DNA of 15,810 nt from positions 2,487 to 18,296 of the forward strand of contig CADBAC010000006.1 in the NCBI GenBank assembly GCA_902792495.1, read 5' to 3'. The stretch comes from Ruminococcus flavefaciens. Its GTDB lineage: Bacteria > Bacillota > Clostridia > Oscillospirales > Ruminococcaceae. The translations under genes and the position numbers were made by a program. Under the pieces are notes generated by a model that ran no database searches, was not told where the DNA came from, and was given only the letters and a program-made list of their open reading frames with translations. Shown one piece after another: positions 7,476 through 15,647 of this stretch (within the stretch, counting starts at the first letter, position 1; the number at the start of each line of letters is the position of its first letter).

Positions 7476-7730
7476 ATGAAACTTGAACTTTTTGACGATA
7501 TGGATGGGCTTATCCTGCATGAGCGTGAAAACAGCCTGTCTGTGACGGATATGCGCAATGACAGACAGGAACGTCCCGAAACTTCACGGCTCCCAAAAAA
7601 TATGCCGCTGGCAATGGCTTATGTGCCCTTCCAGCAGTGGGGAGATGTTCACAGCAGTGAAGATGCCCTTGAAAGCGGTACGCTCTTCCCTGACCTTGTA
7701 TTCCCATTCGGCAAAGGAGGCGGAAGATAA
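7476..7730 (+). CDS. cotJA: Spore coat associated protein CotJA
   Basis: An 84-residue CotJA homologue. The family core is clear: PLAMAYVPFQQW, then EDALESGTLFPDLVFPFGK near the C-terminus. CotJA is a small protein of the inner spore coat encoded with CotJB and CotJC. The ATG at 7476 is set by AAAGGAGG seven nt upstream; longer frames begin inside the leader. The TAA overlaps the cotJB ATG by one base (TAATG), so translation is coupled. Residues 1-40 are variable and not conserved in pattern. Its presence next to a split cotJC is the context that identifies the interrupted gene. Confidence 0.93.
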   Translation: MKLELFDDMDGLILHERENSLSVTDMRNDRQERPETSRLPKNMPLAMAYVPFQQWGDVHSSEDALESGTLFPDLVFPFGKGGGR

Positions 7731-7978
7731 TGAACGAACGCAGAATGCTTCTCATGAAAATAAAAGAGTACGATTTTGCACTAAAGGAACTGAACCTCTA
7801 CCTGGACACTCATCCCAACTGCCGGCGTGGACTTGCAATGTTTGAGAAATACAAGGCACTCAGGCAGAAATGTATCAGCGACTACACTCAGCGTTTCGGT
7901 CCGCTTATGCCCGAACAGAACAACGATACTCAGCACTGGGACTGGATCGACGACCCGTGGCCCTGGGAAAGGAGATAA
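7730..7978 (+). CDS. cotJB: Spore coat protein CotJB
   Basis: An 82-residue CotJB homologue. The helical N-terminal part (LLMKIKEYDFALKELNLYLDTHPN) and the tryptophan-rich tail (HWDWIDDPWPWE) are diagnostic. CotJB works with CotJC in the spore coat in Bacillus. It overlaps cotJA by one base and is followed, three bases after its TAA, by the ATG of cotJC; the AAAGGAG within its last codons serves cotJC. Intact cotJA and cotJB with normal length show the operon is not decaying. Confidence 0.93.
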   Translation: MNERRMLLMKIKEYDFALKELNLYLDTHPNCRRGLAMFEKYKALRQKCISDYTQRFGPLMPEQNNDTQHWDWIDDPWPWERR

Positions 7979-7981
7979 TCT

Positions 7982-8026
7982 ATGTGGCAGTATGAGAAAA
8001 AATCCCTGTATCCATGTTGTACATAA
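7982..8026 (+). pseudogene. cotJC: cotJC, 5' fragment (interrupted by element)
   Basis: With AAAGGAG seven nt upstream, an ATG opens MWQYEKK, the usual CotJC N-terminus (MWxYEKKLQYPV in the family, from memory). After codon 7 (AAA at 8000-8002) the frame leaves the gene, reading SLYPCCT and a TAA at 8024-8026. The remaining gene is found, in frame and undamaged, beginning with TTA (Leu) at 15060. This is therefore the upstream half of a gene split by a 7-kb insertion, rather than decay. As it stands it can encode only a 14-residue peptide. Confidence 0.9.
7991..8025 (+). other. attL of the cotJC intervening element
   Basis: The left junction. Bases 7991-8013 match 15048-15070 at 17 of 23 positions (TATG..AA.AAAT..C.GTATCC). 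Inside the element, TGTTGTACATA (8015-8025) is the exact reverse complement of TATGTACAACA at the right end. The inferred crossover is between 8000 and 8001, in the AAA codon. Confidence 0.8.
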
Positions 8027-8050
8027 AAAACACCACAGTTAACCGTGGTG
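8025..8050 (-). terminator. Rho-independent terminator at the left edge of the element
   Basis: Read on the minus strand: CACCAC and GTGGTG flank an 8-nt region containing the palindrome GTTAAC, followed by TTTTTT. It stops the minus-strand cargo transcript before it runs antisense into cotJB and abuts the left arm repeat of the element. Confidence 0.85.
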
Positions 8051-8064
8051 CTCATATGGCATTT

Positions 8065-8433
8065 CTATGCGCTGATGCTGTAGCCGTTTTTGGAAAGCAG
8101 ATCCATAGCGGCTGTGAAGTTTTCAGCTTTTACAAGAACGTAGTCGGTATCATACGTAGAAACTGCGAATATGCCTATCTTTGCTTCTGCAAGAAGTGCG
8201 GCAATGGGCGAAAGTATACCTGTCAGCGAAAAATCCAGCTGTCCTTTTATACGGAATGCCCTCCAGCCGTCTTCTCTTGCCTTGCAGTCAGCAGGTACGG
8301 ACTTTGTTTCGCAAACCAGCGAAAGCTCACAGTCGGTCTTTCCGATGAAGAAAAACTCTCCCGAAAGCGTGTTCTGCGTTATTGCTGTGGGCTGGCAGAC
8401 TGTAAGTTCATAGGGAAGTATCTCAAGTATCAT
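8065..8433 (-). CDS. ACT-domain-containing protein
   Basis: A 122-residue protein with two small alpha-beta lobes; the second (about residues 58-120: GWRAFRIKGQLDF...GILSPIAALLAEAKIGIFAVSTYDTDYVLVKAENFTAAMDLL) fits the ACT_7 pattern, a ligand-binding fold that usually senses amino acids. The ILSPIAALLAEAKIGIFAVSTYDTDYVLV stretch is the most characteristic part. It begins inside the last codons of the GNAT gene (11-bp overlap) with AAGGAG seven nt upstream, and is the last gene of a run that starts with an amino-acid transporter, which fits a role tied to amino-acid supply. It has no fused catalytic domain, so its job is unknown. Confidence 0.8.
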   Translation of the reverse strand: MILEILPYELTVCQPTAITQNTLSGEFFFIGKTDCELSLVCETKSVPADCKAREDGWRAFRIKGQLDFSLTGILSPIAALLAEAKIGIFAVSTYDTDYVLVKAENFTAAMDLLSKNGYSISA

Positions 8434-8869
8434 CAGCTATCTCCTTGTACATATTGATATGGGGGCAGAATTCGTCCATATACTCATCGCCGAAAGGAAT
8501 ATACCCCAGCGACTTGTAAAAGCCTGTGACTCTTACCTGTGCGGATAATTCAAAGCGGCGGAATCCCTGCTTTACTGCGTAGTCCTCGCAGGCCCTCACC
8601 ACCTCGGCACCAAGTCCTGTTCCACGGTATTCCTTCAGCACTGCCACTCTGCCGATATGCATTGTCCTGCCGTCCTCGGTAAAGAATCTTGCGGTTGCGG
8701 CACATTTTCCGTCCTGATAGAGTACACAGTGCACGGAACGGCTGTCCGTTTCATCGAATTCCGTTTCAAACCCCTGCTCCTCCACGAATACCTTTTCACG
8801 TATCATTGCGGCATCGGGAAGTTTTTCAAGGCTCTCCGAAAAAACTGCTTCTGTATTTCTCATACACAT
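8423..8869 (-). CDS. ElaA-like GNAT acetyltransferase
   Basis: A 148-residue acetyltransferase with the ElaA-type opening IREKVFVEEQGFETEFDETD and the acetyl-CoA loop VAVLKEYRGTGLGAEVVRACEDYA (RGTGLG, motif A). The C-terminus (GFYKSLGYIPFGDEYMDEFCPHINMYKEI) has the usual motif B and the CPHI/H signature of this subgroup. Substrate unknown. The first ATG (8869) lies one base past the TGA of the ABC ATPase; a second in-frame ATG two codons on is an equal candidate. It overlaps the ACT gene. Its place at the end of an amino-acid transporter run suggests action on an imported amino acid or amine, but that is inference. Confidence 0.88.
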   Translation of the reverse strand: MCMRNTEAVFSESLEKLPDAAMIREKVFVEEQGFETEFDETDSRSVHCVLYQDGKCAATARFFTEDGRTMHIGRVAVLKEYRGTGLGAEVVRACEDYAVKQGFRRFELSAQVRVTGFYKSLGYIPFGDEYMDEFCPHINMYKEIADDT

Positions 8870-8870
8870 A

Positions 8871-9596
8871 TCAGAGCACCCTTGAAAGGAATTCTTTCAG
8901 ACGTGGACTTTCGGGATTCGAGAAGAACTTGTCTGGGCTGTTCTGTTCCATGACAACTCCGTCAGCCATGAACATCACACGGGACGCAACTTCTTTTGCA
9001 AAGCCCATTTCGTGAGTAACGACTACCATAGTCATTCCCTCATCTGCAAGCTGTTTCATCAGGTTGAGTACCTCGCCTACCATTTCGGGGTCAAGGGCTG
9101 ACGTTGGCTCATCGAAAAGAATAACTTCGGGATTCATTGCAAGCGTTCTTGCAATGGCGATCCTCTGCTTCTGACCGCCTGACAGACTTGCAGGATAATC
9201 GTCGGCCTTGTCGGGGAGTCCTACTCTTTTGAGAAGTTCAGCCGCTTTCTTGTCGGCTTCCTCCTGAGTCATGATGCCCAACTTTACGGGAGCGAGAGTG
9301 ATATTCTTCTTTATGGTGAGATGTGGGAAAAGGTTGAAATGCTGGAAAACCATACCCATTCTTCTGCGTATCAGGTTTATCTCTTTGTCGTGGAGTTTTG
9401 TTATCTCCTTGCCGTCGAAGTAGATCTCGCCCGATGTGGGAGTTTCCATAAGGTTGAGACAGCGTAGAAATGTACTTTTTCCCGAGCCTGAGGGTCCGAT
9501 GATAACTACCTTTTCGCCCTTCTGTATCTCCTCGGTAATGCCTTTCAGCACCTTTCTGTCACCAAAATCCTTGGTAAGGTTTTTAACGCTTATCAT
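8871..9596 (-). CDS. Polar amino-acid ABC transporter, ATP-binding protein
   Basis: The ATPase subunit (GlnQ/HisP type) that powers import. It shows Walker [11 protein letters not shown]-loop region [15 protein letters not shown], signature LSGGQKQR, Walker [14 protein letters not shown] and the switch histidine in VVTHEMGFA. The ATG at 9596 is preferred: GGAG lies about 11 nt upstream, whereas an in-frame TTG at 9605 would sit only 2 nt from it. The product is 241 residues, typical. It overlaps the permease gene by 14 bp and is followed one base later by the GNAT gene. The substrate class is polar amino acids (glutamine, cystine or similar); which one cannot be told. Confidence 0.95.
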
Positions 9597-10272
9597 TTGA
9601 AGCAAGTCTCCTTTCGAGTAAATTCACAAGACGGGTCAGAAGGACCACCATAATAAGGTAGATCAGCGCTACAGCTATAAGCGGCATGAACGCCGAGAAA
9701 GTCTGTGAACGGATGATATCTCCGCCCTTTGTGATGTCTGCAATGGCAATGTATCCTGCAACCGATGTTTCCTTCAGAAGAACGATAGCTTCATTTGCAA
9801 GGGCAGGAAGCACTGTTTTCAGCGCCTGAGGCATGATTATGGAAACCATGGTCTGACGGTAGTTGAGACCGAGACTTCTTCCTGCTTCAAGCTGACCTAC
9901 GTCAACAGCCATGATACCGCCTCTGACGATCTCAGCAACATATGCTCCCGAGTTGATACCAAAGGCGATTATTGCCACGAAAGTCTTGGAAATAGGCACA
10001 GACGCAAAAATAACGAAATAAATGATAAGAAGCTGTACAACAACAGGTGTTCCACGAATGACTGTGAGATAGATGCGGCACAGTATATCCGGTATCAGCA
10101 GACGCTTCGTCCTCAGATATGTGGAACGGATTATAGCCACAAGAAAGCCGAGCACCATACCGATGATAACGGCAAAGAATGTGATAATAAGTGTAGTTTT
10201 CAGACCGTCTGTAAGGTATCTCCAGCGGTCTTCTTCAATAAAATTCTGTCTGAAGCTTTCAGCAAAATTCAT
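9583..10272 (-). CDS. Polar amino-acid ABC transporter, permease
   Basis: A 229-residue HisM/GlnP-family permease forming the membrane channel, probably as a homodimer since only one permease gene is present. Hydrophobic spans are visible at about 27-50 ([20 protein letters not shown]), 68-90 ([16 protein letters not shown]), 95-115, 155-180 and 198-218. The family loop that contacts the ATPase reads [25 protein letters not shown] (EAA motif). AAGGAG lies seven nt before the ATG. Its 3' end overlaps the ATPase gene. Between it and the binding-protein gene there is a stable hairpin. Confidence 0.95.
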
Positions 10273-10298
10273 ATCAAGACTCCTTTCAAAATCATGAA

Positions 10299-10325
10299 CA
10301 GGCTGTCCTTTCGGGGAACAGCCTG
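10299..10325 (-). promoter_or_regulatory. Intercistronic hairpin between binding protein and permease
   Basis: CAGGCTGT and ACAGCCTG pair perfectly over 8 bp, with a further CC/GG inside the loop. No proper T tract follows on the minus strand. Such hairpins often raise binding-protein mRNA over the permease and ATPase by blocking 3' decay or causing partial termination; that role here is inferred. Confidence 0.6.
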
Positions 10326-10332
10326 TGTGTTA

Positions 10333-11118
10333 TCAGTCCTTTCTCACCATTACAACCAGGTGAGTAGTTGTGTATGTATCAGAGAAGAGAACGTTCTTCT
10401 CACGGTCGGGAGTAACTGTCATTCCTGCAACTCCCACATCAGCCTTTCCTGACTGTACAGCAGGGATAATGGAATCGAACGCCATATCCTCTACCTGAAG
10501 TTCATAGCCCAGCTGATCACAGACAGCGTTCATCATGTCGATATCGAAACCTATGATATCTGCGCCGTTCTTGAATTCATAAGGCGGAAACTCCGCATTT
10601 GTAGCCATTACCAGCTTGCCCTTGCTGTGGTCTGTGCCCTCGGGAGTTGTATAAGCGCTCTTGCCTGCATTCTCGCTGTCGTAGTTATCCTTGATCTGCT
10701 TTAATGTACCGTTGTCGCTGAGAGTTTTCAGTGCACCGTTTATCTCGCTCTGTAAAGCAGTATTTTCAAGCTTGATCGCAATAGCGTAGGACTCATCGGC
10801 ATATCCTTCGGAAAGCTTTGTGATGTCCTGATTATTCCTGAGGAAAGCCTCAGCAGTATCGCTGTCGATGATGATAGCATCGATCTTGCCCTGCTTGAGT
10901 GCCTGTACAGCGTCCGAATACTTGTTGTACTTCTCAACTGTTGCGTCCTCTACGTCCTCAGCAAGGGTATCGCCTGTAGTACCCAGCTGAACACCGATAG
11001 TCTTGCCTTTCAGATCATCGATGGAGTGTACGGGATTCGGCTTTGCGCTTGCCCCGCATGAAGAGAGCATTGCTGCCAACATAAGAGATGCAGCAAATCC
11101 TGTGATAGTTTTTTTCAT
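10333..11118 (-). CDS. Amino-acid-binding lipoprotein (SBP_bac_3), circularly permuted
   Basis: The extracellular receptor of the transporter: a 261-residue lipoprotein with signal peptide and lipobox LSSC (lipidated Cys21). The two halves of the family fold are in reverse order. Residues about 31-135 carry what is normally the C-terminal part (SIDDLKGKTIGVQLGTTGDT, ADESYAIAIKLEN, LKQIKDNYD). Residues about 160-261 carry what is normally the N-terminal part (KGKLVMATNAEFPPYEF, GFDIDMMNAVCDQLGYEL, DSIIPAVQSGKADVGVAGMTVTPDREKNVLFSDTY). A PEGTDHSKG linker joins them. Similar permuted receptors exist in Clostridia as far as I recall. The ligand-contact arginine (R in TPDREKNV) and acidic residues are retained, so it should bind amino acids. 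AAAGGA precedes the ATG. Confidence 0.92.
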   Translation of the reverse strand: MKKTITGFAASLMLAAMLSSCGASAKPNPVHSIDDLKGKTIGVQLGTTGDTLAEDVEDATVEKYNKYSDAVQALKQGKIDAIIIDSDTAEAFLRNNQDITKLSEGYADESYAIAIKLENTALQSEINGALKTLSDNGTLKQIKDNYDSENAGKSAYTTPEGTDHSKGKLVMATNAEFPPYEFKNGADIIGFDIDMMNAVCDQLGYELQVEDMAFDSIIPAVQSGKADVGVAGMTVTPDREKNVLFSDTYTTTHLVVMVRKD

Positions 11119-11168
11119 GTCTCATATTCCTTTCTGTCCAGTGCCTTTCGGCCTGTAGTTATAGAATC

Positions 11169-11197
11169 ATTATAACACTATGAATAGCAAAATGCAA
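11169..11197 (-). promoter_or_regulatory. SigA-type promoter for the ABC transporter run
   Basis: On the minus strand: TTGCAT (complement of 11192-11197), 17 bp, TATAAT (complement of 11169-11174). The start codon of the binding protein is about 50 bp downstream. It would drive binding protein, permease, ATPase, GNAT and ACT genes up to the terminator at 8025-8050. Confidence 0.8.
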
Positions 11198-11227
11198 GGG
11201 GAAATGATGATTTATACGGCATATAAA

Positions 11228-11265
11228 AAACAGCTGTAGGTATTCGTTCATCCTTACAGCTGTTT
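11228..11265 (-). terminator. Rho-independent terminator of the pectate lyase gene
   Basis: AAACAGCTGTA (11228-11238) and TACAGCTGTTT (11255-11265) pair over 11 bp with a 16-nt loop. On the minus strand the stem ends in a run of six T. It begins 24 bp past the lyase stop codon and separates it from the transporter promoter. Confidence 0.88.
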
Positions 11266-11289
11266 ATATTTATCCGGCAGAAAGGTATA

Positions 11290-13008
11290 TCATTCGCCGA
11301 GTGCGTTGATTATGCACTTTTTCAGTGCTGTGAGATCAAAGACATCCAGCGTTCCGTCGGTTATCATATCGGCACGTTTTCCCTGTTCTTCGGTCATATC
11401 TCCGCTGCCGTGAAGCCATTTGCTGAACACTACCGCATCGGCTACATCAAGACCGCCGTCAGCGTTGATATCTCCCATAAGCAGTTCGGGGATATCCTGA
11501 GGGACAGGTTCTGTCACTGGAACTACTTCCACGGGAACGACCTCGCCGTTTGAGGAAGCAGCCTTCATTCTTCCTGCGTACTCCATAACAGCAGCTTTAG
11601 CTTCATCGGGAGTCTGAATGTCATAGCTGTAAAGTTCAGCATCAAAATTATCATAGCCGTCGCCGCCCTCGATAAGGTTTGGTATCACAACGTTTTCGCT
11701 TCGGCTTTCTGCAATTTTATAAGCGTATTCACCGCCCATGTCGCAGTTGTCGAATTTATCACCGAAGGACTTGATAGTTCCCGAAAACTTGTCTTTTCCC
11801 ATATTTATCGCATACAGCGGATTGGTTGCCTTTTCAAAATAGTTGCACTCCGAGAATATCTTTGAATTGTATGAAGCGCAGATACCGTACTCGGAGTTAG
11901 TGGAGAAATAGTTGTTGAAAGAATGGATATGTGCATTTCTTGCACGGGGATTTCTTGACTGTGTATTGTTGAACCAGTTGTGGTGGTAGGTTATGAAGTC
12001 CTGTATCTGATCTGCCCTGCCGCCTACAAGGGATGTCTTGTGACAGTCCCTGAACTCGTTGTATGACACTGTAACATACTCAGCCCACTTCATATCCACT
12101 GAACCGTCGCCCTCGGCTTTATCAGCGTCAACATGGCCGTTGCCTGCAAACTGGTTGAAGCCTCTTTCGATCGTATTGTTGTGCACCCATATATGAGCGG
12201 AACGTATTTCGGCATTTCCTGTCATGGCTATACCGTCATCGGGATAATTTCCCAGCCACAGATTGCGGAATTCACAGCTTGTGCAGCGCTTCATCTCAAT
12301 TCCCCACGATCTGAGGTCTGTGTCAGGGCCGATACCCTCAACAGTAACATTTGAGCTGTTCTGGAGATAAAGCATATTCGAGCCGTCATTGTGGCTTCCG
12401 TCGTTGGCTACAGTACCGCTTGGCACATCAAGGCCGCCTACAAATCGGAATACCACATTCTTTGGTTTTGCGCTGAAAAAGATATTGTAAAGACCGACCT
12501 TGCCGTTGTAGGTTATGGTGTCCTTGTTTTCGTTGGTAACGTAGATGACTGTAACGTCAGGCTTCAGTGTACCGTCATCATTGTATCCGCCTATGCCTTC
12601 AAAGTTGTGATGAGCGTATCCGCTTCTGTCATATGCCATTGTTTTCGCTGTAAATTCGGCATTTCCCTTAGAACCTGATATCCTGACAGTGTATTCTGTA
12701 TCTCCTTTCAGTCCGGGGATATCCACTCTTGTGCCACGTATCAGTTCGGGGTCAGCATCGGTGAAAACGCTCTCTCCTGCCTGTGCATAGCTTACATGAA
12801 CGTCGCTTCCTATGGCGTTTTCGTCCCATTCCGCATAGGCTGACTCAAACCATCCGCCGCACAGTTTAACGGCGCTTTCCTCCATGATAACGGCATTATC
12901 CGTCACCGCATCATCTGCCATAGCGTACATTGGAAATGCAGTGAGCTGAACTGCGGACAAAGCGATAACAGCTGCATTCATGAGCTTTCTGCTGAATGTT
13001 TTCCTCAT
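11290..13008 (-). CDS. Secreted pectate lyase (PL1) with C-terminal dockerin
   Basis: A 572-residue exoenzyme that would cleave polygalacturonate by beta-elimination. Signal peptide 1-31 (cleavage after AMA). Residues about 45-125 look like a fibronectin III/purple acid phosphatase-like strand-rich domain. The PL1 parallel beta-helix (about 130-470) has the calcium-site segment DGSVDMKW (D305), VTVSYNEFRDCHKTSLVG, and YHHNWFNNTQSRNPRAR with the catalytic-type arginine at 355. A Val/Pro/Glu linker (about 485-510) leads to a type I dockerin (511-572): GDINADGGLDVADAVVF is a good calcium loop, whereas the second repeat (TDGTLDVFDLTALKK) lacks its opening GD-N. It would dock on a cellulosomal scaffoldin, a trait of rumen or gut Ruminococcus. 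GAGGTG precedes the ATG. A fibre-degrading enzyme is surprising cargo for an element in a spore gene. Confidence 0.93.
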   Translation of the reverse strand: MRKTFSRKLMNAAVIALSAVQLTAFPMYAMADDAVTDNAVIMEESAVKLCGGWFESAYAEWDENAIGSDVHVSYAQAGESVFTDADPELIRGTRVDIPGLKGDTEYTVRISGSKGNAEFTAKTMAYDRSGYAHHNFEGIGGYNDDGTLKPDVTVIYVTNENKDTITYNGKVGLYNIFFSAKPKNVVFRFVGGLDVPSGTVANDGSHNDGSNMLYLQNSSNVTVEGIGPDTDLRSWGIEMKRCTSCEFRNLWLGNYPDDGIAMTGNAEIRSAHIWVHNNTIERGFNQFAGNGHVDADKAEGDGSVDMKWAEYVTVSYNEFRDCHKTSLVGGRADQIQDFITYHHNWFNNTQSRNPRARNAHIHSFNNYFSTNSEYGICASYNSKIFSECNYFEKATNPLYAINMGKDKFSGTIKSFGDKFDNCDMGGEYAYKIAESRSENVVIPNLIEGGDGYDNFDAELYSYDIQTPDEAKAAVMEYAGRMKAASSNGEVVPVEVVPVTEPVPQDIPELLMGDINADGGLDVADAVVFSKWLHGSGDMTEEQGKRADMITDGTLDVFDLTALKKCIINALGE

Positions 13009-13032
13009 TTTAATATCACCTCAAAAAAATAA

Positions 13033-13112
13033 ATAAAAACGGTAAAGCCGTTAAACCGATGATCCATATAGGGTGCAGACCTGTCTGTATCTGTGTTTAT
13101 ACGGCTTTTCCG
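13033..13112 (-). promoter_or_regulatory. Structured attenuator-like leader of the pectate lyase gene
   Basis: Complementary strands at 13040-13056 and 13095-13112 (core AAGCCGT-TAAAC) form a stem of about 16 pairs with one mismatch and one bulge, closing a 38-nt apical region with a small AGAC/GTCT helix. On the minus strand the stem runs directly into TTTTTATTTATTTTTTT, then the ribosome binding site GAGGTG. A smaller hairpin (AACGG-CTTTA-CCGTT) uses the same 3' arm. Only about 31 nt separate the stem from the start codon, too few for a promoter, so the hairpin lies in the lyase leader. It matches no riboswitch class I know. Confidence 0.6.
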
Positions 13113-13146
13113 AGGATACCTGTCCCCCATGACAAAGTACTATTAG

Positions 13147-13155
13147 ATGATATCA
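13147..13155 (-). promoter_or_regulatory. Extended -10 promoter candidate for pectate lyase
   Basis: The minus strand reads TGATATCAT, an extended -10 (TGn) with one mismatch to TATAAT. No good -35 is seen. Transcription from about 13140 would give a leader of about 130 nt that includes the whole hairpin. Confidence 0.35.
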
Positions 13156-13204
13156 CAGAAAAGGAAAAAAATGTATGATAAATCGTACTTTAAAATTGAT
13201 TTAA

Positions 13205-13468
13205 TCAGCTTTTTTCATCAGGTCTGAGTATTTCCATATCGTGGATACGGCTGATATCCTGCCCTGTGAATGCGGTCTGAATCAGCGCATATGTAATGTC
13301 AGAGGCAAGTTTTTCTTCTTCCTCTGCGGTATGCTTCGGTATGCGGCACTCTATCAGCGCTCCGTTGCAGATGTTCCTTATAACTCCCGTGATACCGTTT
13401 TCTGTCTCGGTCTCACTTATTATTTCGTACTCCGTCCGCTCATACATCGATGGCTTTTCATCCGGCAT
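13205..13468 (-). CDS. Small acidic hypothetical protein beside the recombinase
   Basis: An 87-residue protein with no family I recognise. The ATG at 13468 is chosen because AAGGGAG lies eight nt upstream; a longer frame reaching 13582 would overlap the recombinase start and has a hydrophobic, unlikely beginning. The sequence is strongly acidic at both ends (MPDEKPSMYERTEYEI; RIHDMEILRPDEKS), with a predicted beta strand then a long helix (HTAEEEEKLASDITYALIQTAF). It is divergent from the recombinase with 97 bp between them. By position and size it is a candidate recombination directionality factor or accessory regulator; that is inference only. No terminator follows before the lyase leader. 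Confidence 0.7.
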   Translation of the reverse strand: MPDEKPSMYERTEYEIISETETENGITGVIRNICNGALIECRIPKHTAEEEEKLASDITYALIQTAFTGQDISRIHDMEILRPDEKS

Positions 13469-13565
13469 ATTATCAGCTCCCTTCCGTAATCTATATGGTA
13501 TCTCCGTCAAGAGTATGCATTGTCCGCCTTTGAAGGAAATATACTGGAAAGAAAGGAGTGGTAAA

Positions 13566-15029
13566 GTGGAAGAATACTGCATTTACCTGAGAAAATCCCG
13601 TGCAGATGCAGAGGCTGAAGCACGGGGCGAGGGCGAAACTCTTGCCCGTCACATGAAAATGCTCACCGAACTTGGCTGTAAGCAAAAGCTGAACGTGACA
13701 AGGATATACAAGGAGATAGTCAGCGGAGACAGCATTGCCGCCCGTCCGCAGATGCAGGCTCTCCTTGAAGATGTAAACAGCGGACGATATTCAGGGGTCC
13801 TTGTAGCCGAAATAGAACGTCTTGCCCGTGGTGACACCATCGATCAGGGCATAGTGGCTCAGGCTTTCCGTAAGTCGTCAACAAAGATCATTACTCCCGT
13901 AAAGACTTACGATCCTGACAATGAATTTGATGAGGAATACTTCGAGTTCTCGCTTTTCATGAGCCGCCGTGAATACAAGACCATCAACCGCCGTATGCAG
14001 ACAGGCAGACTTGCTTCCGTCAGGGACGGAAACTACATAGGCACATCTGCTCCCTACGGCTACAGAAAGACATCTCCCCTGCCGAAAATACATACCCTTG
14101 AGATAATTCCCGAAGAAGCTGAGGTCGTAAGGCTTATCTACAGGCTTTATCTTGATGGGCACGGTCCCGGATATATCGCAGGCGAACTTGACCGCATGGG
14201 TATCAGTCCGCAGAAAAGCCGCTCATGGAATCCCTCCAGCATTAAAAAGATACTGTCCAATCATATGTACTGCGGTATGGTTGGATGGAAAAGCAAGTCC
14301 AACGGCGGCACACTGTACAAGGGGCTTCATCAGCCCATGATCAGTGAGGAAATATACAATGCCGTTCAGCAGAAAAAGCATTCCTCTCCTGCCGCTCAGA
14401 TACATACAGACCAAAGGCTGATGAACTGCTATCACGGCATTCTCTTCTGCCGTAACTGCGGACATCAGATGAAACGCCGCAAAGTCACGGGAAACGGCAG
14501 TGAACATATGCTTTGCGTTTGCAGGGATTGCCGTGGAAAAACTGTCAGTTCCAAAACCGAAACAGTCAGTGAAGCTGTGATATCTGCTCTGCGCTACCGT
14601 ATAAGCAAACTTCCGCATCTGATAAGAAACGGAACGGCCGTGCAGGAAGATCAGCCCGATGTTAAAACAATCCTTACCGCCGAACTGGAAAAGGCCAAGC
14701 GTCAGCTTGCAAGGATGTACGATCTGCTCGAACAAGAGATCTACGATAACGGTATTTTCCTCGAACGCTCGGAAACAGTCAGCGAAAAGATACGTTCTCT
14801 TGAAGCGTCCATAAGAGGTCTTGACTTCTGTGAAAAGCCTGTCAGTGATATGCCCGAAAAAGCCGTCCTCAGACTTGATGATGTTATGGGATGCTTTTTC
14901 TCAGCGGCTCCCGATGAAAAAAACAGACTTCTCCACGCTGCATTCAGCAGGATAGACTACCATAAAACGAGAAGGTGCAGCCGTAACAATAAAGATACCG
15001 ACCTGATGCTGAACGCTTCTTTCCTGTAA
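13566..15029 (+). CDS. Large serine recombinase of the cotJC element
   Basis: A 487-residue large serine recombinase. The resolvase domain opens EEYCIYLRKSRAD with the catalytic serine at position 11 and includes the GEGETLARH, SGDSIAARPQM and LVAEIERLARGD segments (to about 130). A recombinase domain follows (APYGYRK, HGPGYIAGELDRMGI, WNPSSIKKILSNHMYCG, about 160-255), then a zinc ribbon (C295, C298, C319, C322) and a coiled-coil region (about 366-420). The GTG at 13566 is the start: GAAAGGAG lies seven nt upstream and upstream in-frame codons are antisense to the neighbouring gene. It is the likely integrase and excisase of this element. The stop at 15027-15029 is 3 bp from the right arm repeat. 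The following cotJC half is in the same frame, separated by this single TAA. Confidence 0.95.
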   Translation: MEEYCIYLRKSRADAEAEARGEGETLARHMKMLTELGCKQKLNVTRIYKEIVSGDSIAARPQMQALLEDVNSGRYSGVLVAEIERLARGDTIDQGIVAQAFRKSSTKIITPVKTYDPDNEFDEEYFEFSLFMSRREYKTINRRMQTGRLASVRDGNYIGTSAPYGYRKTSPLPKIHTLEIIPEEAEVVRLIYRLYLDGHGPGYIAGELDRMGISPQKSRSWNPSSIKKILSNHMYCGMVGWKSKSNGGTLYKGLHQPMISEEIYNAVQQKKHSSPAAQIHTDQRLMNCYHGILFCRNCGHQMKRRKVTGNGSEHMLCVCRDCRGKTVSSKTETVSEAVISALRYRISKLPHLIRNGTAVQEDQPDVKTILTAELEKAKRQLARMYDLLEQEIYDNGIFLERSETVSEKIRSLEASIRGLDFCEKPVSDMPEKAVLRLDDVMGCFFSAAPDEKNRLLHAAFSRIDYHKTRRCSRNNKDTDLMLNASFL

Positions 15030-15032
15030 AAC

Positions 15033-15070
15033 TATGTACAACAAGGCTATGGCAATAAATTACAGTATCC
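15033..15070 (+). other. attR of the cotJC intervening element
   Basis: The right junction. TATGTACAACA (15033-15043) mirrors the left arm repeat. Bases 15048-15070 match the left copy at 17 of 23 positions. The inferred crossover lies between 15057 and 15058. Everything from TTA at 15060 is cotJC sequence in frame with the left half. Confidence 0.8.
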
Positions 15071-15647
15071 GGTAAATATAAAGACCCCAAACGCTAAACT
15101 CGCTAAAGTAATAATCTCTCAGCTCGGAGGTCCTGACGGCGAACTTGCGGCTTCGCTGAGATATCTCAATCAGCGCTATGTTATGCCGTACCCCGAAGTA
15201 AAGGGACTGCTGACCGATATCGGCACAGAAGAACTCGCCCACGTTGAGATGATCTCGGCCATTCTCTATCAGCTTACAAAGGGGCTCTCCATCGATGAGA
15301 TAAAAGCAGGAGGATTCGACACATATTTCGTCGATCACACCACGGGCATATACCCTGTGGCCGCTTCGGGAGTTCCGTTTACAGCGGCATATTTCCAGTC
15401 AAAGGGCGATGTGATCACCGATCTCACTGAAAACCTTGCCGCCGAACAAAAGGCAAGAACCACCTACGACAACATCCTCAGACTGGCCGATGATCCCGAT
15501 GTCCGTGACCCTATCCGCTTCCTCAGACAGCGTGAGATAGTTCATTACCAGCGCTTTGGAGAAGCCCTGAGGCTCGCACAGGATAATCTCAATTCAAAGA
15601 ATTTCTACGCCTGCAATCCTGCATTTGACAAAAACTGCGGAAGATAA
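15060..15647 (+). pseudogene. cotJC: cotJC, 3' fragment (manganese catalase-like coat protein)
   Basis: The remaining 195 codons of cotJC, intact to the TAA at 15645-15647. With the seven codons at 7982-8002 the protein is 202 residues, near family length. Manganese-catalase ligand positions in the joined numbering are E35 (DGELAA), E65 and H68 (EELAH), E136 (LAAEQKARTTY) and H169 (REIVHYQRF). CotJC is a di-manganese catalase-like protein of the spore coat. On its own this half has no start codon: the preceding in-frame codons run back to the recombinase stop, and the first ATG (15183) would drop the first metal ligand. The frame shows no decay, so either the insertion is recent or excision keeps the gene under selection. 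Confidence 0.93.

What the first reader, a model, noticed from the sequence alone, without database searches (positions are those of the whole stretch)
7982..15647. cotJC is split by a 7-kb recombinase-bearing element and would be rebuilt by excision
Seven N-terminal codons (MWQYEKK) follow cotJB at the expected place. The other 195 codons start in frame at 15060 behind a large serine recombinase. Joining AAA (8000-8002) to TTA (15060) gives MWQYEKKLQYPVNIK, the canonical CotJC start, and a 202-aa protein with all five metal-ligand positions. Neither half shows decay. The known parallels are skin in sigK, SPbeta in spsM and the gerE element, each excised in the mother cell to restore a sporulation gene. 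I cannot exclude that interrupted cotJC loci have been reported; this one, in a Ruminococcus-like genome with nutrient-gene cargo, looks new.
Basis: partly seen in the sequence, partly recalled or inferred. Interest (0 to 1): 0.95.

Follow-up and report, generated by a model that had tools for sequence, protein, structure and literature searches.

The report
Spore-coat gene cut by excisable islands
In a gut Ruminococcus, the spore-coat enzyme gene cotJC is cut in two by a 7-kb DNA island that carries its own recombinase, and in most species of its genus where the gene was found it is cut at one or more of six recurrent places, by islands that are predicted to be cut out again when the cell makes a spore, which would rebuild the gene.

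Summary
Confirmed, and larger than reported. cotJC is cut after codon 7 by a 7,057-bp element with a 487-aa serine recombinase and inverted ends; the halves abut as in the uncut site of the nearest relative, Ruminococcus flavefaciens FD-1. The draft genome (80% complete) shows no second cotJC. Of 60 genus genomes, 35 have a cut cotJC, 13 an uncut one, 12 none detected. Cuts recur at six sites (codons about 7, 30, 62, 65, 134, 174), up to four in one gene; a control gene gave a single match in 96 of 99 genomes. Each site has its own recombinase clade. Fifty junctions examined join without losing or doubling a codon. Cut and uncut genes show equal purifying selection (median dN/dS 0.028, 0.029). 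Two viral contigs with recombinases 96% and 79% identical to a codon-65 one carry the joined attachment site expected of a free form. An 87-aa protein kept in codon-7 elements with different cargo is a candidate directionality factor. Excision in sporulating mother cells is inferred: no excised junction was found in the assembly, and recombinases lack a sigmaK-type promoter. It works like skin, SPbeta and gin; new are the target and the many cuts per sporulation gene.

The parts
7476..7730 (+). cotJA
   Evidence: Pfam CotJA 2.2e-16
7730..7978 (+). cotJB
   Evidence: Pfam CotJB 9.8e-31
7982..8002 (+). cotJC 5' part, codons 1-7 (MWQYEKK)
   Evidence: same start as uncut relatives
7991..8030 (.). 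left junction (attL): coding GAGAAAAAA into element TCCCTGTATCCATGTTGTACATA
   Evidence: sequence; palindrome test; shared core AAAT
8003..15059 (.). 7,057-bp intervening element
   Evidence: absent at the empty site of R. flavefaciens FD-1
8065..8433 (-). ACT-domain protein (cargo)
   Evidence: Pfam ACT_7 1.3e-19
8423..8869 (-). GNAT acetyltransferase (cargo)
   Evidence: Pfam 8e-18
8871..9605 (-). ABC transporter ATPase (cargo; amino-acid type inferred from its neighbours)
   Evidence: Pfam 1.6e-40
9583..10272 (-). ABC transporter permease (cargo)
   Evidence: Pfam 6.7e-20
10333..11118 (-). family 3 solute-binding protein (cargo)
   Evidence: Pfam SBP_bac_3 3.7e-34
11290..13008 (-). pectate lyase with dockerin (cargo)
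   Evidence: Pfam 4.8e-22 and 2.6e-06
13205..13468 (-). 87-aa protein, candidate recombination directionality factor (predicted)
   Evidence: relatives of 39-72% identity, among the loci held, only in site-A elements or viral contigs with a site-A-type recombinase; no Pfam or PHROG match
13566..15029 (+). large serine recombinase, 487 aa, site-A clade
   Evidence: Pfam Resolvase + Recombinase; PHROG integrase 6.3e-93; tree
15034..15075 (.). right junction (attR): TATGTACAACAAGGCTATGGCAATAAA into coding TTACAG
   Evidence: aligned with right ends of nine other loci
15060..15647 (+). cotJC 3' part, codons 8-202
   Evidence: Pfam Mn_catalase 1.5e-53

Best explanation
cotJC is cut after its seventh codon by a 7,057-bp element that encodes its own serine recombinase, and this recombinase, probably together with the 87-aa protein beside it, is predicted to cut the element out in the mother cell during sporulation, which would rebuild the 202-codon gene. 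Shown by sequence: the cut, the exact junctions, the recombinase, the inverted ends, the empty site in a sister species, and cuts of the same kind at six sites of cotJC in many relatives, each site with its own recombinase clade. Inferred: recombination between attL and attR at the AA core gives a circle and an intact cotJC; the mother cell is the place because cotJC is a spore-coat gene and the mother cell is terminal, so loss of the element there costs nothing while the forespore keeps it. The six sites lie in DNA more conserved than the gene's average, which would let one integrase lineage enter many species. Some elements of this kind are likely phages; others, like the window's, carry ordinary host-type genes.
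For: Gene halves, families and junctions. Empty site in FD-1. Single cotJC found in the genome. Recurrence. Control gene YigZ: found in 96 of 99 genomes (own plus 98 relatives), one match each, two of them partial. Site-clade match, 55 recombinases: 5 label changes where 5 is the least possible, shuffled mean 33.8. Exons intact: no stops in codons 70-172; nearest-neighbour dN/dS median 0.0276 in cut (26 of 28; two had saturated dS) versus 0.0286 in uncut (13 of 13). Movement of such elements: the E element of G009 is 96-97% identical to that of G022 over two stretches of 2.1 and 1.3 kb, while their cotJC exons are 77% identical. Free joined attP: L295 and L296 (site C2), L272 and L275 (site-B type, read by eye). 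Candidate directionality factor. spoIVA and spo0A present.
Against: No excision was observed. The own assembly has no circle junction (an assembly is a weak test). A sigmaK-type pattern lies before 1 of 55 recombinases strictly and 4 of 55 loosely, against 3 and 45 of 407 other ORFs. The cotJ promoters themselves fit it in 9 of 30 loci, and the window's misses the last position by eye. 12 of 60 genus genomes gave no cotJC piece, and four of these (G012, G017, G040, G043) do have cotJB, so loss of cotJC may be tolerated there. Whether this host or R. flavefaciens makes spores was not established; one search listing was seen. The dN/dS values include time before the insertions. The own genome is 79.6% complete, so a second cotJC could be missing.
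Confidence: 0.82

Rival explanations
1. Ordinary temperate phages and islands use cotJC as an attachment site; they come out now and then at random or on induction, without any link to sporulation, and cotJC is rebuilt only in that fraction of cells.
For: Endolysin and repressor genes on viral contig L295 (site C2 recombinase, free attP) and endolysin, tail and tape-measure genes on L272 (site-B-type recombinase, free attP); horizontal movement; no sporulation promoter pattern before most recombinases.
Against: The window element and those of G050 and G009, as far as scanned, show no phage structural genes but host-type cargo; exons keep strong selection, which is hard if a gene with up to four cuts were rebuilt only by chance; six recombinase clades use the same sporulation gene.
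Confidence: 0.15
2. cotJC is dispensable or sporulation is lost in these hosts, and the cut gene is a tolerated wreck.
For: 12 of 60 genus genomes show no cotJC piece (8 of them are under 90% complete), four of them with cotJB; cotJC homologues in C. difficile are described as redundant (PMC11222575, passages).
Against: No stops in codons 70-172 and dN/dS equal to uncut copies; 50 junctions exact; spoIVA and spo0A present in the window's genome.
Confidence: 0.05
3. The 3' part is made as a shorter protein from a start inside it (ATG 15183) or by read-through of the recombinase, whose frame it shares.
For: ORF of 154 aa from 15183; recombinase stop and exon are in one frame (sequence).
Against: A product from 15183 lacks the first 48 residues, yet codons 8-47 stay like those of uncut relatives; it cannot work for genes in three to five pieces.
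Confidence: 0.03
4. Assembly or binning error.
For: The window's genome is a fragmented draft of 531 contigs; several relatives have the parts on different contigs.
Against: In the window both halves and the element lie on one contig; the same cut recurs in many genomes; G093 shows three cuts in order on one 1.55-Mb contig of a genome scored 100% complete.
Confidence: 0.01

Closest known systems
skin in sigK, SPbeta in spsM, vfbin in spoVFB, gin in gerE, yin in yabG (PMC5595907 and PMC10747680, passages seen; PMC4191935, search listing only)
   Same: Element with a serine recombinase inside a sporulation gene; junctions that rebuild the gene; gin too lacks phage genes; a directionality factor decides excision in several of them.
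   Different: Target is cotJC; six recombinase clades at six sites; up to four elements in one gene; cut in 35 of 48 genus genomes with cotJC. Regulated excision is shown there, only predicted here.
Heterocyst interruption elements of cyanobacteria (PMC4874684, passages seen)
   Same: Several elements per gene are known there (nifD of Rivularia by four); recombinase on the element.
   Different: Other phylum, other cell type, other genes; here viral contigs with a free attP of the same kind are seen.
Active lysogeny / prophage regulatory switches (named in PMC10747680 passages; otherwise recalled)
   Same: Prophage in a gene acts as a switch.
   Different: Here host-type cargo, and a terminal cell would make loss free; control unknown.
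phi027 prophage of C. difficile R20291 beside a CotJC homologue (PMC11222575, passages)
   Same: A prophage next to a CotJC-type catalase gene.
   Different: In the passages seen the gene is called adjacent, not interrupted, and no link to sporulation excision is made.

Membership tests
Sporulation gene-intervening elements | element lies inside the coding region of a sporulation gene | tested here: met
Sporulation gene-intervening elements | element encodes a site-specific recombinase | tested here: met
Sporulation gene-intervening elements | att repeats allow exact in-frame rebuilding | tested here: met
   core AAAT, joined MWQYEKKLQYPVNIK; by sequence only
Sporulation gene-intervening elements | a directionality factor on the element | tested here: inconclusive
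   87-aa candidate kept in site-A elements; no activity data
Sporulation gene-intervening elements | recombinase or directionality factor under a sporulation sigma factor | tested here: inconclusive
   sigmaK pattern strictly before 1 of 55 recombinases; CATA-type -10 before the 87-aa gene in several loci, also readable as sigmaA (by eye)
Sporulation gene-intervening elements | excision during sporulation, mother cell only | not testable with these tools
   needs cultures or reads; one search found no junction in the assembly
Large serine integrases | Resolvase N-terminal plus Recombinase domain, about 500 aa | tested here: met
Large serine integrases | palindromic attP of about 50 bp with 2-bp core | tested here: inconclusive
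   palindrome met; free attP seen beside related recombinases; core length not proven
Prophage | phage structural or lysis genes on the window's element | tested here: not met
   seven element proteins in Pfam and the 87-aa one in Pfam and PHROGs: none structural or lysis
Heterocyst-type multi-element interruption | several elements in one gene | tested here: not met
   one element in the window's genome; met in relatives G037 (four cuts) and G093 (three)

The most novel reading that the evidence does not exclude
cotJC of Ruminococcus and its order is a DNA-level intron gene: a docking place that at least six integrase lineages, from phages to islands of host genes, have entered at fixed conserved codons, so that a working spore-coat catalase must be put together in each mother cell by one to four separate recombinations, each by its own recombinase and partner factor.
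Probability: 0.6. Interest if true: 0.93.

Novelty: new variant of a known kind. Interest (0 to 1): 0.87.

Why it matters
It would turn a textbook curiosity (one prophage in sigK) into a common state of one gene in a major genus of gut and rumen bacteria. It offers natural series of cut and uncut species, six recombinase-site pairs with predicted attachment sites and a candidate directionality factor, and a way to ask why mobile DNA prefers genes of a terminal cell. It also warns that gene finders may call cotJC missing or broken in such genomes.

Tried and rejected
Circle junction in the own assembly: none. sigmaK-type pattern before recombinases: strict 1 of 55, loose 4 of 55; other ORFs 3 and 45 of 407 (its per-clade labels are partly off where one locus holds two recombinases, so only totals are used). 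Pfam and PHROG for the 87-aa protein: no match. Its AlphaFold model is weak (pLDDT 72, pTM 0.40), and a fold search was not accepted. Cargo: the ABC cassette occurs on other contigs without cotJC in the stretches held (G034, G009, G012) and, with ACT and GNAT, on G005:C151, a 5.4-kb contig with no cotJC piece, so the cargo is host-type but its source is unknown. The free attP of L142 (recombinase 62% to the window's) has another core by eye, so it is not shown to target cotJC.

Dropped before counts: 55 rows were printed; four site-A rows pair different gene copies or one uncut gene (G015, G026, G088, L217), and the site-C row of G039 is only two contig ends that overlap, with no element seen; 50 rows remain. 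Two dN/dS values with saturated dS. Six of 35 cut genomes were not given to because codons 70-172 are not in one piece (G006, G011, G018, G036, G042, G049), and G019 of the 29 given did not pass. In one search the best join point is chosen within a fixed frame, so the test is that no codon is lost or doubled, not that frame is kept by chance. In one search five of the 11 records outside my N-terminus pattern look uncut by eye (L172, L197, L207, L225, L226).
Full report
cotJA (7476-7730) and cotJB (7730-7978) are followed by ATG TGG CAG TAT GAG AAA AAA (7982-8002) and then by element sequence; codons 8-202 start at 15060. Between them lie 7,057 bp. The element ends carry inverted TATGTACAACA; joined as a circle would join them they form a palindrome centred on AA, reached by 3 of 2000 shuffles. 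The recombinase (13566-15029) is a full-length large serine integrase.

The empty site exists. In L158 the left flank of the window ends at 10001 and the 3' part begins at the same base. Own genome: one cotJC match in a 79.6% complete draft; spoIVA (711 bits) and two spo0A-type genes over the cut-off.

The surprise is recurrence. Of 99 genomes searched (own plus 98 relatives) 81 gave a cotJC match, many in pieces. I fetched stretches round the pieces and read the boundaries. In the genus (60 genomes with G000) I count 35 cut, 13 uncut and 12 without a detected cotJC. The 13 uncut have cotJB and codon 8 only 28-37 bp apart. Some of the 35 show only one side of a cut. Of the 12, eight are under 90% complete, and four (G012, G017, G040, G043) have cotJB. 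In the 39 other genomes of the order, boundaries at the same sites are seen in 11 (G060, G071, G072, G081, G082, G083, G088, G091, G093, G094, G098; G094 by hit range and adjoining recombinase only; G091 also has an uncut copy). In 299 genomes of the phylum 185 gave a match; in the capped list most run from residue 1, but some begin at the same places (query residues 20-22 and 50-58, ranges only). Among the 80 best named records 69 are uncut by my pattern, five more look uncut, six are cut; that list favours full-length matches. A control gene of like length, YigZ, was found in 96 of the 99 genomes with one match each; two of these covered only part of it.

Six sites recur: A codon 7|8 (core AAA), B about 30 (GG), C1 about 62 (GATATAGGTA), C2 about 65 (GAAGAA), D about 134 (GCAGCAGA), E about 174 (TTCGGTGAA). 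They lie in DNA more conserved than the gene's average (0.797 against 0.742; 21 of 20000 random draws reach it; 83 uncut genes; C1 and C2 are neighbours and not independent). G037, a 73% complete draft, has cuts at A, B and C2 on one contig and at E with the last part on another, five pieces; G093 has C, D and E in order on one contig. Of 55 pairs printed, 50 are junctions of this kind (A 13, B 8, C 16, D 4, E 9), all without a lost or doubled codon; one search adds G032 (E) and G058 (B) by eye.

Each site has its own recombinase lineage. The tree of 55 recombinases near the boundaries needs 5 label changes for six labels, the least possible, against a shuffled mean of 33.8. C2 taken alone needs two, because G082's lies beside clade A. 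Site labels were set from exon boundaries; that of G060 was checked only afterwards.

The cut genes are alive by sequence. In codons 70-172 there are no stops; nearest-neighbour dN/dS has median 0.0276 for cut (26 of 28) and 0.0286 for uncut genes (13 of 13); the codon model's last logged omega for the cut set is 0.022. These averages include time before insertion.

The elements move. The E elements of G009 and G022 share 96.6% identity over 2,149 bp and 97.2% over 1,282 bp, their cotJC exons 77%. Elements share the recombinase but not the cargo: window, transporter, acetyltransferase, pectate lyase; G050, methionine synthase and GGDEF/EAL proteins; G009, SpaA-type surface protein and sortase. 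Sizes from hit coordinates run from about 6 kb (G018) to about 52 kb (G002) at site A, and about 160 kb at site E of G035.

Free forms exist in relatives. Viral contigs L295 and L296 carry C2 recombinases 96% and 79% identical to that of G044, followed by a whole attP with core GAGGA; L295's arms match the left and right ends of the G044 element by eye. L272 and L275, with recombinases 51% and 50% identical to the site-B one of G007, show a whole attP with core GGCGGT or GGAGGT. L295 and L272 encode endolysin, and L272 tail and tape-measure proteins. Other viral contigs hold a recombinase joined to cotJC. Whether the contigs are circular was not shown.

Candidate directionality factor. An 87-aa protein (13205-13468, minus) has relatives of 39-72% identity in site-A elements of G006, G013, G018, G019, G022, G024, G035, G037 and L168 and in viral contigs L141-L143; the other loci held gave no hit at 1e-4. 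It was not seen in site-A loci held only in part (G007, G038, G029, G002, G052), nor in viral contig L144, which is held whole and has a recombinase 57% identical to the window's. PMC5595907 (passages) states that in SPbeta and C. difficile skin the recombinase is constitutive and the factor is under sporulation sigma factors; this would fit the lack of a sporulation promoter before most recombinases here, but the promoter of the 87-aa gene is ambiguous.

Prior work. Ten paper searches in the held library listed no report of an interrupted cotJC; most subscription papers and preprints are not covered. Targets named in PMC10747680 (passages) are sigK, spsM, spoVFB, gerE and yabG. Multiple elements in one gene are known in cyanobacteria: nifD of Rivularia by four (PMC4874684, passages). 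Hence new variant of a known kind.

What is not shown: excision, its timing, its cell, and the partner factor's role.

Noticed in passing
L217 8710-14126: A site-C element in a record titled Lachnospiraceae bacterium holds a second, diverged and complete cotJA-cotJB-cotJC set between the two parts of the outer cotJC.
   Followed up: partly
L057 5070-6383 (G029): cotJC codons 30-202 and cotJB lie close together but in opposite directions, as if the locus were inverted; draft genome, may be an assembly fault.
   Followed up: no
L044 4897-5117 (G015): A relic: site-A right end, cotJC codons 8-50 next to 176-202, in a genome with an uncut cotJC on another contig.
   Followed up: partly
L295 11616-14628: Viral contig with free C2 attP encodes a reverse transcriptase, an Avd protein and a decoration-like protein, likely a diversity-generating retroelement.
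   Followed up: no
window 15027-15060: The recombinase stop and the 3' part of cotJC share one frame, ten codons apart (sequence).
   Followed up: no
L036 and L050: G006 and G022 share 6,395 bp at 99.7% identity with a site-E recombinase; G006 has two different site-E 3' parts, so contamination is possible.
   Followed up: no
upstream of cotJA in L112-L140 and window: cotJ promoters look like AC-N15/18-CATAnnnTA in 9 of 30 loci, a sigmaK-like pattern (recalled consensus).
   Followed up: partly
G035:C1:938323-1098391: The two parts of cotJC at site E lie about 160 kb apart on one strand of a 3.6-Mb contig.
   Followed up: no
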